A program made the translations under genes and the position numbers. The notes under the pieces are model-generated. The model had not been told where the DNA came from. It searched no databases and was given only the letters and a program-made list of their open reading frames with translations. Positions 3,599 through 27,373 of a stretch of 29,764 nt of DNA are shown here, one piece after another. Numbering within the stretch: position 1 is the stretch's first letter; the number at the start of each line of letters is the position of its first letter. The DNA comes from a virus, in the IMG/VR virus record IMGVR_UViG_3300030012_001576, positions 1 to 29,764 of that record, one strand, 5' to 3'.

Positions 3599-3607
3599 CG
3601 TTCCCCC

Positions 3608-3955
3608 TTATGTTATTTCAAGTATGCTTAGTGTAGCGTCTATCTTTGCTTGAACACTACAATTTATTTTCAAAACATCGGTTGCCTGTAAACACACCTT
3701 TCCACCAGTAAGAACCTCTAACGTTGAGCCATTAGGTATGCTAACCCCTTTGACAACTGAAACATTTGAGTTTGTTTCTGTGTCGCTTGTGTCGGACTCT
3801 ATTTCTACATCTACTGTTACGGCTGTAGTATGAATGTTACAAAGCAATAACCCTATGATAACTGTGGTTGTGGAACTTGGTACTGTGTAAAGGGTTTCAG
3901 CCGAACCAGAACTAGGCATTGCTCCGTTGGTTTTTACCTTAAATGTGTTAGCCAT
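3608..3955 (-). CDS. Small beta-rich virion-type protein
   Basis: This 115-aa protein has no charged clusters and consists of alternating Thr/Ser/Val/Ile strands: TLYTVPSSTTTVIIGLLLCNIH, then VDVEIES, then a Gly/Lys turn and ATLSILEIT. The pattern (vytVP ... viiGl ... N) is one I recall for a widespread small virion protein family in marine phages, with an immunoglobulin-like look. A GGAG site lies just before the ATG at 3955. Its position after the tail tip gene suggests a tip-associated decoration or adaptor, but the function is unproven. Confidence 0.65.
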   Translation of the reverse strand: MANTFKVKTNGAMPSSGSAETLYTVPSSTTTVIIGLLLCNIHTTAVTVDVEIESDTSDTETNSNVSVVKGVSIPNGSTLEVLTGGKVCLQATDVLKINCSVQAKIDATLSILEIT

Positions 3956-3965
3956 GTTCTACTCC

Positions 3966-4280
3966 CTATCCTAGAGCAATCGCCAAAGGTAAAGCATTTG
4001 GGTCAGTTTCTGATATAGTACCAGTCGTTGACATTGTGCTTGTGATTGCATTGCTTGTTATATTTATTGAAAACAACTCAATATTGTCAGAACCATCGTT
4101 AATCTTTACTTTTAGTGTGCCACTTGTTCCATTATCGACCCATATAGTCCCGGTGGTGACCGAGCCAGGTGCTGAACTTCCTATATGTGAAGTATTCAAA
4201 GCCGTTAAAATATTATTCAATTCAGTCCTAAAAGAACTAAAACCTTGATTTGCTAAACTTACATCTGAAACTTGTGCCAT
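3966..4280 (-). CDS. Small tail-fibre-associated protein
   Basis: A 104-aa protein. The first 40 residues are helical (NQGFSSFRTELNNILTALNT), and the second part has the short repeat SSAPGSVTTGTIWVDNGTSG-like arrangement followed by LKVKINDGSDNIELF. This helix plus GxxWxD...LKxxxG arrangement is typical of short fibre or tip-connector proteins in phages. It is the first gene after the long tail tip gene, separated by 22 bases, with a GGAT site rather than a strong Shine-Dalgarno. It may trimerise through the N-terminal helix; this is inference. Confidence 0.65.
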   Translation of the reverse strand: MAQVSDVSLANQGFSSFRTELNNILTALNTSHIGSSAPGSVTTGTIWVDNGTSGTLKVKINDGSDNIELFSINITSNAITSTMSTTGTISETDPNALPLAIALG

Positions 4281-21669: not shown

Positions 21670-22544
21670 AGCCACCCCCTCAAATCTAGATATTTTTCTG
21701 CTTGTTCCTTTGTAAACTCGCCCTCAGATATTGCCCGGTGGACATCTCCCGTGTGGTGTCGAGCAGTGGATACGACATATCCTTTGACAGTTTGGGTTTC
21801 CACACACTCTTTGAACTGCTTTAATCTGAAAGGATACATGTCTACCTTTTCGGTGCTGAGAGCCTTTGGGTTCTCATCAAGATATTTTTTTGCAGATAAC
21901 CAAAAGGCGGGTTGCTTTGCAAATTGCTTGTCTTCTACAGAGTCAAAATACTTATTGTACATCTTTGCTAACTCTTGAGGTTTTTCTATCCAATCTTTTT
22001 CTAGTTTTAGATAGTTTTTTTCTGCTGTCCCCTTGCTGACTTTATTCTTTACATCATTCCAAAAGGAAAGAAACTGTGAACTATAGTTCACCTTACTGTG
22101 TTTAGGTTTAGAGATAGGGGTAAGGGGTGTTGGTAGGGGGGTTTCCTCTGGGTTATTGTTAGGTTTTTTTGGTCTTCCACCTAGCTTGCCATTTCTCTTA
22201 GATGCTTCCATTCGCCTTGTTATATAAAGATATTCTTGAAGCTGTCTCTCGTTTTGATAATGGTCGTTAATATAAACAAAAAACTCTTTGATAATTAAGT
22301 CACACGAATGTTTCTCCTCATCTGTGTGGCAGTTTGCTATTCTATAGTAAGTCATGTTGTAGCTTGGTATGCCAATGCATCCCTTGTTCCAGTTCCAACA
22401 GAGCAATCTGATATATATTCCTATTTCAGTATTACTAAGATGTTGAGTCCCGGCTATAAAATCATTAGTGAATAAATACCAAGCTTTTAATTTTTCTTTT
22501 GGTTTTGAGTTTTCGTCTATTACTTCGAAATCGTCATTTGTCAT
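21666..22544 (-). CDS. DUF1376-type phage replication protein
   Basis: Residues about 18-115 match DUF1376 as I know it: LKAWYLFTNDFIAGTQHLSN, then E-x-G-x-Y-x-R-L-L-C (about 40-49), NWNKGCIGIP, and the RRMEASKRNGKLGGRPKK region following. A linker of Asn, Pro and Thr (about 127-150) leads to a helical C-terminal domain (about 155-292) with FWNDVKNKVSKG and aromatic-rich helices, ending in the KEQAEKYLDLRGWL motif. DUF1376 proteins in phages replace or precede replication initiators and helicase loaders, so initiation of DNA replication is the likely role. Its leader has a perfect TATAAT and GGAG. Confidence 0.82.
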   Translation of the reverse strand: MTNDDFEVIDENSKPKEKLKAWYLFTNDFIAGTQHLSNTEIGIYIRLLCWNWNKGCIGIPSYNMTYYRIANCHTDEEKHSCDLIIKEFFVYINDHYQNERQLQEYLYITRRMEASKRNGKLGGRPKKPNNNPEETPLPTPLTPISKPKHSKVNYSSQFLSFWNDVKNKVSKGTAEKNYLKLEKDWIEKPQELAKMYNKYFDSVEDKQFAKQPAFWLSAKKYLDENPKALSTEKVDMYPFRLKQFKECVETQTVKGYVVSTARHHTGDVHRAISEGEFTKEQAEKYLDLRGWL

Positions 22545-22566
22545 TTTTGAACTCCAATATTGTTTT

Positions 22567-25200: not shown

Positions 25201-25515
25201 TTATTTATTAATTACGTTATAACCTCGACCCTCAAGACACCTATTTAGAAAGTCTTGTCTTGTTTTCACTTTGGGACTCAGCCATAACACTCTCCATCTA
25301 AGATTATTATAAACGATTTTGCTTTTGTCCCAGACGTAATTCGTATTGTCCTCGACCAGACTTTTGCATGTATAATAATCATCGTGATATCGGTTCATGT
25401 CTCCTTTGACATTTGCCGACGATTTTCCTCTGCTATCAACTATGGGCATGGTGCTACACCCGCCCAAAAAGGCTATTGATATCAAAGCGAAAGCTGTTTT
25501 ATTTAATGTAATCAT
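25201..25515 (-). CDS. Phage-encoded lipoprotein
   Basis: The 104-aa protein starts with a typical lipoprotein signal: MITLNKTAFALISIAFLGGC, with the lipidated Cys at position 20 and Ser at +2, which favours sorting to the outer membrane in Gram-negative hosts. The mature part (about 84 residues) has Cys at about 50 and 93, aromatic residues (NRYHDDYYTCKSL, LRWRVLWLSP) and ends RCLEGRGYNV. The C-x-x-x-x-G-x-G end is a pattern I recall from small marine-phage lipoproteins. Superinfection exclusion or an outer spanin-like function are possibilities; it is far from the lysis cassette. A GGAG leader precedes it. Confidence 0.8.
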   Translation of the reverse strand: MITLNKTAFALISIAFLGGCSTMPIVDSRGKSSANVKGDMNRYHDDYYTCKSLVEDNTNYVWDKSKIVYNNLRWRVLWLSPKVKTRQDFLNRCLEGRGYNVINK

Positions 25516-25536
25516 TTGAACTCCAATTCATCTAAA

Positions 25537-26288: not shown

Positions 26289-26602
26289 TATTCGCTCCCT
26301 TCAATTTTTTCTTTTAGCTTTTCCCAAGATAGACCATCGTTCTCATGTGGCTCGCACTTGTTTTCCCACTTGGCTATAAATCTTTTCAGCTGACCTTCAT
26401 GCCTTTTGTAAAATTTGTAATCTGGCTCTGAATAATGTAGGTCTTGCAAATTTGCCACCGCCATTTCTAACCGCCACTTTGCTTCATTCACAATATAGGT
26501 GTCTGGATAATAAGCATCGACGATATCCGAATCCATACCATCAATCTCAAATTGGGTGGTCAGTTCGTCCACCCTTAATGCATTTTTTACGATTAATCTC
26601 AT
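26288..26602 (-). CDS. First early-operon protein, unknown function
   Basis: The ATG at 26602 has GGAG six bases upstream and is chosen over a TTG four codons earlier, which would lie inside the Shine-Dalgarno leader. The 104-aa product starts MRLIVKNALRVDELTTQFEI, has an acidic DGMDSDIVDAYYPDTYIVNE segment, and then helices with NLQDLHYSEPDYKFYKRHEG and FIAKWENKCEPHENDG. It is acidic and aromatic. As the first gene after the promoter it may be expressed soon after infection. No family recognised. Confidence 0.65.
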   Translation of the reverse strand: MRLIVKNALRVDELTTQFEIDGMDSDIVDAYYPDTYIVNEAKWRLEMAVANLQDLHYSEPDYKFYKRHEGQLKRFIAKWENKCEPHENDGLSWEKLKEKIEGSE

Positions 26603-26631
26603 TTTGAACTCCAATTATTATTATTATTATC

Positions 26632-26641
26632 GTTTATAAAC
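26632..26641. promoter_or_regulatory. Perfect palindrome GTTTATAAAC at the early transcription start
   Basis: The 10-bp perfect palindrome lies three bases downstream of the early promoter's -10 box and covers the expected start point. This is a common place for an operator. A run of ATT triplets follows on the leader side (26613-26629). Confidence 0.45.
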
Positions 26642-26693: not shown

Positions 26694-26721
26694 TTGTAAA
26701 TAAGAATTATTTTGTTAAAAT
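26694..26721 (+). promoter_or_regulatory. Candidate promoter for the VRR-NUC gene
   Basis: TTGTAA and TAAAAT lie 16 bases apart on the plus strand in an AT-rich part of the divergent region. A start near 26728 would give a leader of about 118 bases that contains the whole inverted repeat. A second -10-like TATAAC at 26777 has no -35. Confidence 0.4.
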
Positions 26722-26783
26722 ATCGCCATTCCTCCTAAGACTAGCGGAATATACAAAGAGAACTCCAATTCATTTGTATAACG

Positions 26784-26846
26784 TAGGGGGTAAATTTTAA
26801 AACTTAGATGGGTGCAATCTCATTAAACCTTAGAACTTACCCCCTA
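26784..26846 (+). repeat. Inverted repeat ending at the VRR-NUC start codon
   Basis: TAGGGGGTAA (26784-26793) and TTACCCCCTA (26837-26846) are perfect complements, 43 bases apart. The right arm ends on the A of the ATG. Inside lies a second stem, GATGGG / CTCATT (26807-26824), with a six-base loop. No Shine-Dalgarno precedes the ATG; the arms would hide it in RNA or serve as a protein-binding site in DNA. Confidence 0.8.
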
Positions 26847-27208
26847 TGACAAAAGAATCCGACATACAAATAGCATGCAACGACTACCTTAATTACCTAT
26901 CCAAGTACTATCACTTCCGACATTTTCACGTTCCGAATGAGGGACAAAAGTCTATCGGATATCATTTGAAGATGAAAAAGATGGGTTTAAAGTCTGGTTG
27001 CCCAGATATTATTATTGAGTACCCGGAAGGTAGAATTCTTTATATTGAGCTTAAAAATGAAAAGGGAAGATTGTCCGAGTCTCAAAAGTTGTGGGCGGTA
27101 CAGTCTAAAGCTCTTGGCACACCTCACTTTATTGTCAAGGGGTGTTTAACGGAGTGCTTGGATGAAATCAAACAAATCATCGAAACAAGCATCCCTGTGA
27201 GGCGTTGA
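26846..27208 (+). CDS. VRR-NUC domain nuclease
   Basis: The 120-aa protein is a complete VRR-NUC domain: an N-terminal Glu helix (ESDIQIACNDYL), HVPNEGQKS, the GLKSGCPDIII with catalytic Asp, the YIELKNEKGRLS with Glu-x-Lys, and SQKLWAVQSKALG. The active set Glu, Asp, Glu, Lys and the later Gln/Trp are present. Small single-domain VRR-NUC proteins occur in phages and can cut branched DNA or act as Holliday junction resolvases. This is the only gene here on the plus strand, divergent from the early operon and convergent with the basic small genes. Its start lacks a ribosome site, see the inverted repeat entry. Confidence 0.9.
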   Translation: MTKESDIQIACNDYLNYLSKYYHFRHFHVPNEGQKSIGYHLKMKKMGLKSGCPDIIIEYPEGRILYIELKNEKGRLSESQKLWAVQSKALGTPHFIVKGCLTECLDEIKQIIETSIPVRR

Positions 27209-27217
27209 GGATTTTGC

Positions 27218-27373
27218 CTAGCTCTTTATCCTTTTAACGGACAACAGTCTCTGTACCGCCTTTAAATTGCCCTTGTAGGGCATTTTGTTTTTCCGGGTCT
27301 TTGCCCTTCTTTTCCTCATAGGTCTTTTATCTATTAATTCAGAGATGGTAGCTGTCGTTGTGAAACCACTCAT
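27218..27373 (-). CDS. Small very basic protein (51 aa)
   Basis: A 51-codon frame begins with ATG at 27373, overlapping the preceding stop as ATGA, and ends at TAG. It starts MSGFTTTATISELIDKRPMR, followed by KRRAKTRKNKMPYKGNLKAV and a RLLSVKRIKS end, about a third Lys/Arg. Coupling supports it. It converges with the VRR-NUC gene, leaving nine bases between the stops. Function unknown; nucleic-acid binding is possible from charge. Confidence 0.62.
   Translation of the reverse strand: MSGFTTTATISELIDKRPMRKRRAKTRKNKMPYKGNLKAVQRLLSVKRIKS
27268..27292 (+). terminator. Candidate terminator for the VRR-NUC gene
   Basis: On the plus strand TGCCC pairs with GGGCA around a TTGTA loop and is followed by TTTTGTTTTT. 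It lies 60 bases after the VRR-NUC stop. It is inside the convergent 51-aa gene, so the same bases code for Met-Pro-Tyr-Lys-Gly on the other strand. Confidence 0.6.

What the first reader, a model, noticed from the sequence alone, without database searches (positions are those of the whole stretch)
26784..26846. Perfect inverted repeat ending on the start codon of the only plus-strand gene
A 10-bp perfect arm pair with a nested 6-bp stem encloses the leader of the VRR-NUC gene and its right arm includes the A of ATG. There is no Shine-Dalgarno. This looks like built-in translational control, leaderless expression, or a dimer-bound operator for tight control of a toxic nuclease. The arms are not seen as a plain terminator because no U-run follows.
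Basis: partly seen in the sequence, partly recalled or inferred. Interest (0 to 1): 0.6.

Follow-up and report, generated by a model that had tools for sequence, protein, structure and literature searches.

The report
Phage leader RNA targets early genes
In a family of uncultured ocean phages, the RNA in front of a DNA-junction nuclease gene folds into one hairpin that hides the nuclease's start codon and a second whose loop is complementary to the ribosome-binding sites of the phage's early genes and has changed in step with them, so it is probably a built-in RNA switch that turns early genes off.

Summary
The inverted repeat is real and is a conserved RNA hairpin, P2 (window 26782-26848), that base-pairs all three bases of the VRR-NUC AUG. 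Over 189 related loci (53 distinct arm pairs) it is kept through compensatory changes. G·U pairs outnumber A·C mismatches 50:1, and the arm spacing varies freely, so the folded molecule is plus-strand RNA, not a DNA operator. There is no Shine-Dalgarno (SD), terminator tail or Rfam match.

The surprise lies just upstream. A second hairpin, P1 (26750-26780), occurs in every relative with room to show it. Its arms change completely but its loop keeps xxCUCCAA. That loop is the reverse complement (8-13 nt) of the ribosome-binding sites of several leftward early genes (window: genes starting at 26602, 25515 and 22544). The bases beside the SD core covary with P1: 54 of 59 divergent-gene sites match against 26 expected by permutation; 16 of 16 orthologous 25515-type sites pair better with their own P1. 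The control tail-gene site does not (1 of 7).

Best reading: the VRR-NUC leader is a bifunctional RNA, combining a start-codon lock with an antisense seed loop against early-gene SDs. Pairing and co-evolution are shown by sequence; repression and timing are inferred. Works like T4 e/49 hairpins plus c4 antisense RNA, but is a member of neither.

The parts
26694..26721 (+). Candidate promoter of the rightward transcript: TTGTAA-16-TAAAAT with a TG before the -10
   Evidence: Consensus scan only, 9 of 12; about 2 such sites expected by chance in the region
26728..26750 (+). P0: weak 5' hairpin AUUCC...GGAAU; a hairpin of changing sequence sits here in many relatives
   Evidence: Folds; not tested statistically
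26750..26780 (+). P1 hairpin: UAUACAAA/UUUGUAUA plus GAA/UUC around the loop CUCCAA (26763-26768); the antisense seed
   Evidence: In all relatives with enough upstream sequence (56 distinct forms by MFE; stem list); arms replaced, loop kept
26782..26800 (+). P2 5' arm (UAGGGGGUAA core, SD-like AGGGGGU)
26807..26824 (+). Nested stem-loop GAUGGG-UGCAAU-CUCAUU inside P2; replaced wholesale in other lineages
26830..26848 (+). P2 3' arm, covering the VRR-NUC start codon
26846..27208 (+). VRR-NUC gene, 120 aa, probable Holliday-junction resolvase-type nuclease
   Evidence: Pfam PF08774, 31.6 bits against cut-off 23.8; PHROG 5702 Holliday junction resolvase
27268..27292 (+). Intrinsic terminator-like hairpin after VRR-NUC (TGCCCTTGTAGGGCA TTTTGTTTTT)
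26606..26616 (-). Target 1: ribosome-binding site AATTGGAGTTC of the divergent gene starting at 26602; 11-nt complement of P1, -15.7 kcal/mol
25518..25530 (-). Target 2: TGAATTGGAGTTC before the 104-aa lipoprotein-like gene starting at 25515; 13-nt complement, -21.2 kcal/mol
22549..22558 (-). Target 3: ATTGGAGTTC before the 292-aa DUF1376/primosomal-like gene starting at 22544; 10-nt complement, -14.8 kcal/mol

Best explanation
The 5' leader of the VRR-NUC transcript is a two-module regulatory RNA. Module P2 folds the start codon into a stable hairpin and keeps the nuclease translationally locked on the full-length transcript until something opens it (cleavage, a transcript start inside the hairpin, or a helper). 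Module P1 presents a CUCC-centred loop that base-pairs in trans with the Shine-Dalgarno regions of several early mRNAs made from the opposite strand and blocks 30S binding, so making this transcript helps switch early genes off. Shown here: the conserved RNA folds, the complementarity, and the covariation of seed and targets. Inferred: that pairing happens in cells, that it represses, when the transcript is made, and how P2 opens.
For: P2: 53 distinct arm pairs from 189 loci, own arms 11.09 of 12 paired against 9.87 +/- 0.12 when arms are swapped between phages (0 of 5000); core cells 465 Watson-Crick, 50 G-U, 1 A-C. Independent count: 10 of 13 pairs with changes on both sides, covariation score 0.372 against 0.203 shuffled and 0.06-0.14 slid. 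The hairpin is kept even where the start codon has moved into it. P1: present in all relatives with enough upstream sequence, arms replaced, loop kept. Seed and targets: 9-nt complements at ribosome-binding sites average 3.2 per genome with own P1, 0.6 with other-class P1, 1.0 with randomised flank; own greater in 29 of 29 genomes. Divergent-gene flank matches own P1 in 54 of 59, permutation mean 26.3, maximum 37 in 10,000 permutations. Orthologous 25515-type sites: -17.7 own against -10.1 kcal/mol other, 16 of 16. Specificity: 73% of early TGGAG sites match the P1 flank, against 25% of other GGAG sites in the same region and 11-25% elsewhere. About 7 changes of P1 class on the VRR-NUC tree; close relatives G019 and G028 (distance 0.04) differ in seed and in two targets together. 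Targets are transcribed from the strand opposite the one that carries P1 in the rightward transcript.
Against: No expression data exist here; no transcript, small RNA, pairing or repression has been observed. Some targets do not follow their P1 (divergent gene of L021, L048, L058, L079; C sites of G012 and G019). The phages are related and recombine, so counts are not independent. GGAG/CUCC complementarity is partly expected for any SD, so the evidence rests on the flanking bases. The rightward promoter is a weak consensus match. No separate terminator that would make a discrete small RNA was found between P1 and the gene.
Confidence: 0.72

Rival explanations
1. P2 alone matters: a T4 e/49-type hairpin that hides the start codon; the P1 resemblance to early ribosome-binding sites is a by-product of shared SD sequence.
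For: P2 is the strongest and most widespread feature; T4 genes e, soc, 49 and I-TevI are regulated this way (PMC3014915), gene 49 being the endonuclease VII resolvase by my own knowledge.
Against: Does not explain why the bases flanking the SD core covary with P1 across about 7 changes, nor why the tail gene and other GGAG sites do not.
Confidence: 0.15
2. DNA operator: a phage regulator binds GGAGTTC-type sites in DNA; P1 and the early ribosome-binding sites are its operators.
For: Operators shared by several sites co-evolve with their protein, which would also give matching motifs within each phage.
Against: Target sites sit at SD spacing in front of internal operon genes; P1 is embedded in a stem whose arms are replaced with compensation; some pairings rely on G-U (D site in G004/G017, P1 UUCC in L078/G027); P1 and targets have opposite orientation on the transcripts.
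Confidence: 0.06
3. P1 acts in cis: its CUCC loop forms a pseudoknot with the G-run of the P2 5' arm as an alternative to P2, making a switch for VRR-NUC only.
For: CUCC can pair with GGGG/GGGA a few bases downstream, and both are highly conserved.
Against: A 4-bp pseudoknot cannot compete with the -27.7 kcal/mol hairpin at equilibrium (my estimate); does not explain covariation of the P1 flanks with early genes.
Confidence: 0.05
4. The hairpin is mainly an RNase III-type processing site that cuts the transcript, releasing a P0-P1 small RNA and freeing the VRR-NUC start.
For: Would link both modules and explain why the stem is kept while its inner part is swapped.
Against: No cleavage data; several lineages have only about 13 bp in P2, short for RNase III (my knowledge).
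Confidence: 0.12

Closest known systems
T4 gene e / soc / 49 / I-TevI inhibitory hairpins (PMC3014915)
   Same: [quoted passage not shown] one of these genes (49) encodes a junction-resolving endonuclease (own knowledge).
   Different: No late promoter inside the hairpin was found to be conserved here; the T4 hairpins are not described as carrying an antisense module.
c4 antisense RNA of phages P1 and P7 (Rfam RF01695; Citron and Schuster 1990, cited in PMC12197685)
   Same: Loops of a structured phage RNA complementary to a ribosome-binding region; specificity differs between related phages.
   Different: No Rfam match; several early targets, none shown to be ant; encoded on the opposite strand from its targets, in the leader of a nuclease gene.
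T4 RegB endoribonuclease (PMC3014915)
   Same: Inactivates phage early mRNAs at GGAG in their SD sequences.
   Different: RegB is a protein that cuts; here an RNA loop would pair with GGAG and its phage-specific flank.
Stand-alone VRR-Nuc proteins psNUC, stNUC, saNUC (PMC4103454)
   Same: Small single-domain VRR-Nuc proteins; those tested are dimeric Holliday-junction-cleaving enzymes.
   Different: Activity of this protein not tested.

Membership tests
T4 e/49-type start-codon hairpin | AUG and/or SD paired in a stable hairpin | tested here: met
   All three AUG bases paired in the window; conserved in 189 loci
T4 e/49-type start-codon hairpin | A second promoter inside the hairpin gives a transcript lacking the 5' arm | tested here: inconclusive
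   TATA-like bases before the G-run in many but not all relatives; short-loop forms leave no room; no RNA data
T4 e/49-type start-codon hairpin | Measured repression of translation | not testable with these tools
   No expression data
c4 antisense RNA (RF01695) | Matches the Rfam covariance model | tested here: not met
   No c4 hit up to E = 5
c4 antisense RNA (RF01695) | Loop complementary to a ribosome-binding region | tested here: met
c4 antisense RNA (RF01695) | Target is ant | tested here: not met
   Two of the three targets in the window (25515, 22544) look like a lipoprotein-like gene and a DUF1376/primosomal-like gene; the divergent gene at 26602 has no family match
Trans-acting base-pairing small RNA | One seed with covarying complement in several mRNAs | tested here: met
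Trans-acting base-pairing small RNA | A discrete transcript and chaperone (Hfq) dependence | not testable with these tools
   No RNA data
Intrinsic terminator | U-run after the stem | tested here: not met
   The stem is followed by coding sequence, usually ATGACNAAAGAATC, in the relatives; P2 not called by the scan
VRR-NUC (PF08774) | Score above Pfam gathering threshold | tested here: met
   31.6 against 23.8 bits

The most novel reading that the evidence does not exclude
A marine phage lineage uses the leader of one mRNA as a multi-target antisense regulator of its early genes, with seed and several SD targets co-evolving between lineages, so that co-infecting relatives would have private RNA regulatory codes, a form of RNA-level heteroimmunity, while the same leader locks its own nuclease.
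Probability: 0.35. Interest if true: 0.87.

Novelty: new variant of a known kind. Interest (0 to 1): 0.74.

Why it matters
Phage-encoded base-pairing RNAs that control the phage's own programme are few, and no trans-acting one had been functionally characterised from T4 (PMC3014915, as of 2010). Here the seed, several targets and about 7 co-evolutionary changes can be read from sequence alone, in uncultured phages whose nearest cultured relatives infect SAR11 bacteria. It gives a directly testable model for how such small-genome phages shut off early genes, and natural seed/target swaps as ready-made specificity mutants.

Tried and rejected
Leader peptide between the G-run and the AUG (ATG GGT GCA ... 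CTA TGA in the window): not kept in relatives with the hairpin. Hammerhead or other known RNA in the inner cassette: no Rfam match. Intrinsic terminator: no U-run. Alternative normal start: none in frame with an SD. VRR-NUC in cultured relatives HTVC111P, 112P, 026P, 202P: no match; their strand-switch genes are unrelated. Relatives in GTDB genomes: none. P0 as a second seed: no consistent target seen.

Full report
Observation. The repeat reported at 26784-26846 is there. The 10-bp arms are exact, and as RNA they extend to 12 bp that take in all three bases of the AUG, then 6 bp, then the nested 6-bp stem. Its fold is 5.7 s.d. below shuffled sequence. A G+C-rich perfect repeat of this size alone is expected about 0.2 times per window, so the case rests on comparison.

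Setting. The window is a 29,764-base virus record with nearly all genes on the minus strand. Its terminase is 55-57% identical to those of Pelagibacter phages HTVC026P, 111P, 112P and 202P, which lack this gene. The plus-strand gene is a VRR-NUC protein. Stand-alone VRR-Nuc proteins that were studied resolve four-way junctions as dimers (PMC4103454). The gene lies alone between divergent candidate promoters and a terminator-like hairpin.

The start-codon hairpin (P2). Searches gave 189 loci with VRR-NUC and upstream sequence, many of them overlapping re-fetches of the same contigs, reducing to 53 distinct arm pairs. Own arms pair at 11.09 of 12 positions, against 9.87 when swapped between phages, never reached in 5000 shuffles. 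The core holds 465 Watson-Crick, 50 G·U and 1 A·C combination. G·U without A·C means that selection acts on plus-strand RNA. An independent count gives double-sided changes in 10 of 13 pairs and a covariation score well above shuffled and slid controls. The distance between the arms varies from almost nothing to about 57 nt, and the inner part is exchanged wholesale: none, the window's small stem, or a 45-nt cassette. In L051, L053, L059 and L291, and again in L305 and L306, the AUG has been lost and an in-frame AUG lies inside the hairpin instead, while the stem is preserved; in L304 the AUG has become ATA and an in-frame ATG lies three codons upstream, in the 3' arm. This rules out a fixed-spacing operator and fits a lock on translation initiation, as in T4 e, soc, 49 and I-TevI (PMC3014915).

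The upstream hairpin (P1). Immediately upstream, all relatives with room to show it have a second hairpin whose arms differ completely between lineages but whose loop keeps xxCUCCAA (UUCCAA in the L078 lineage).

What the P1 loop matches. In the window the loop sequence GAACTCCAATT is the exact complement of the ribosome-binding site of the divergent gene (26602); the match is 13 nt at a 104-aa lipoprotein-like gene (25515) and 10 nt at a DUF1376/primosomal-like gene (22544). Predicted duplexes are -14.8 to -21.2 kcal/mol; nine other genes' sites tested gave -2.7 to -9.9. In 28 of 29 further genomes (the exception, G030, has the early region missing from the piece fetched) such sites occur at the corresponding or other early genes, and the bases next to GGAG change with the P1 loop: GAACTC with GGAGTTC, GATCTC with GGAGATC, ATATGCTC with GGAGCATAT, TTATACTC with GGAGTATAA, GTTCTC with GGAGAA. 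The L078/G027 form relies on a G·U pair and is weaker.

Tests. Own P1 finds 3.2 ribosome-binding sites per genome with at least 9 nt, other-class P1 0.6, randomised flanks 1.0. Divergent genes match in 54 of 59 distinct cases, against 26 by permutation. For orthologues of the 25515 gene the own duplex is better in 16 of 16; for the 22544 gene in 7 of 9; for family D in 7 of 11, the four failures being genomes whose D site lacks the motif. In lineages where the 25515-type site is missing, family D carries the matching site. Controls: the tail gene has an AATTGGAG-like site that does not follow P1 (1 of 7); early TGGAG sites match at 73%, other GGAG sites at 11-25%. The P1 class changes about 7 times on the VRR-NUC tree, once between relatives only 0.04 apart with two targets changing as well. 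Relatedness and recombination make the counts non-independent, and exceptions exist (L021, L048, L058, L079, G012, G019).

Mechanism. Most likely the leader is bifunctional: P2 locks the nuclease, P1 pairs with early SDs and blocks ribosomes. Shown: the folds, complementarity and covariation. Inferred: transcription from the candidate promoter, pairing in cells, repression, timing and the opening of P2. 'Early' itself is inferred from gene content and position.

Comparison. It works like the T4 start-codon hairpins and like c4 antisense RNA, but matches no Rfam family, and its targets differ from c4's. T4 achieves a comparable early shut-off with the RegB nuclease, which cuts GGAG in early SDs. 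A search of the held literature found no description of this arrangement; subscription papers and preprints were not searchable.

Noticed in passing
L043 about 3925-3985, L206 about 3600-3665 and the 21 stretches: A 45-nt cassette (UACUUAAAUAAAUCGCAGUAUUUAUAGGAAGUGAAACAGA) is nearly invariant inside P2 of many phages while the stems that carry it differ; no Rfam match.
   Followed up: partly
L032 and L041 (contig IMGVR_UViG_3300030106_000204): One 30,338-bp contig carries VRR-NUC at both ends, one copy with the short P2 and one with the 45-nt cassette, suggesting population-level exchange of the P2 interior.
   Followed up: no
window 26615-26632 and relatives: A run of TAA/AAT repeats sits directly upstream of the SD of the divergent gene in most relatives.
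   Followed up: no
L051, L053, L059, L291, L305, L306, L304: The start codon has been lost at the usual place and an in-frame ATG is found inside the hairpin, adding a few residues to the protein.
   Followed up: partly
G007, upstream of the family-A gene: The ribosome-binding region ATGGGGGGTAAACTA of an early gene resembles the 5' arm of P2.
   Followed up: no
window 25201-25515: Target 2 encodes a small lipoprotein-like protein (GCSTMPIVDSRG) conserved in nearly all these phages; function unknown.
   Followed up: no
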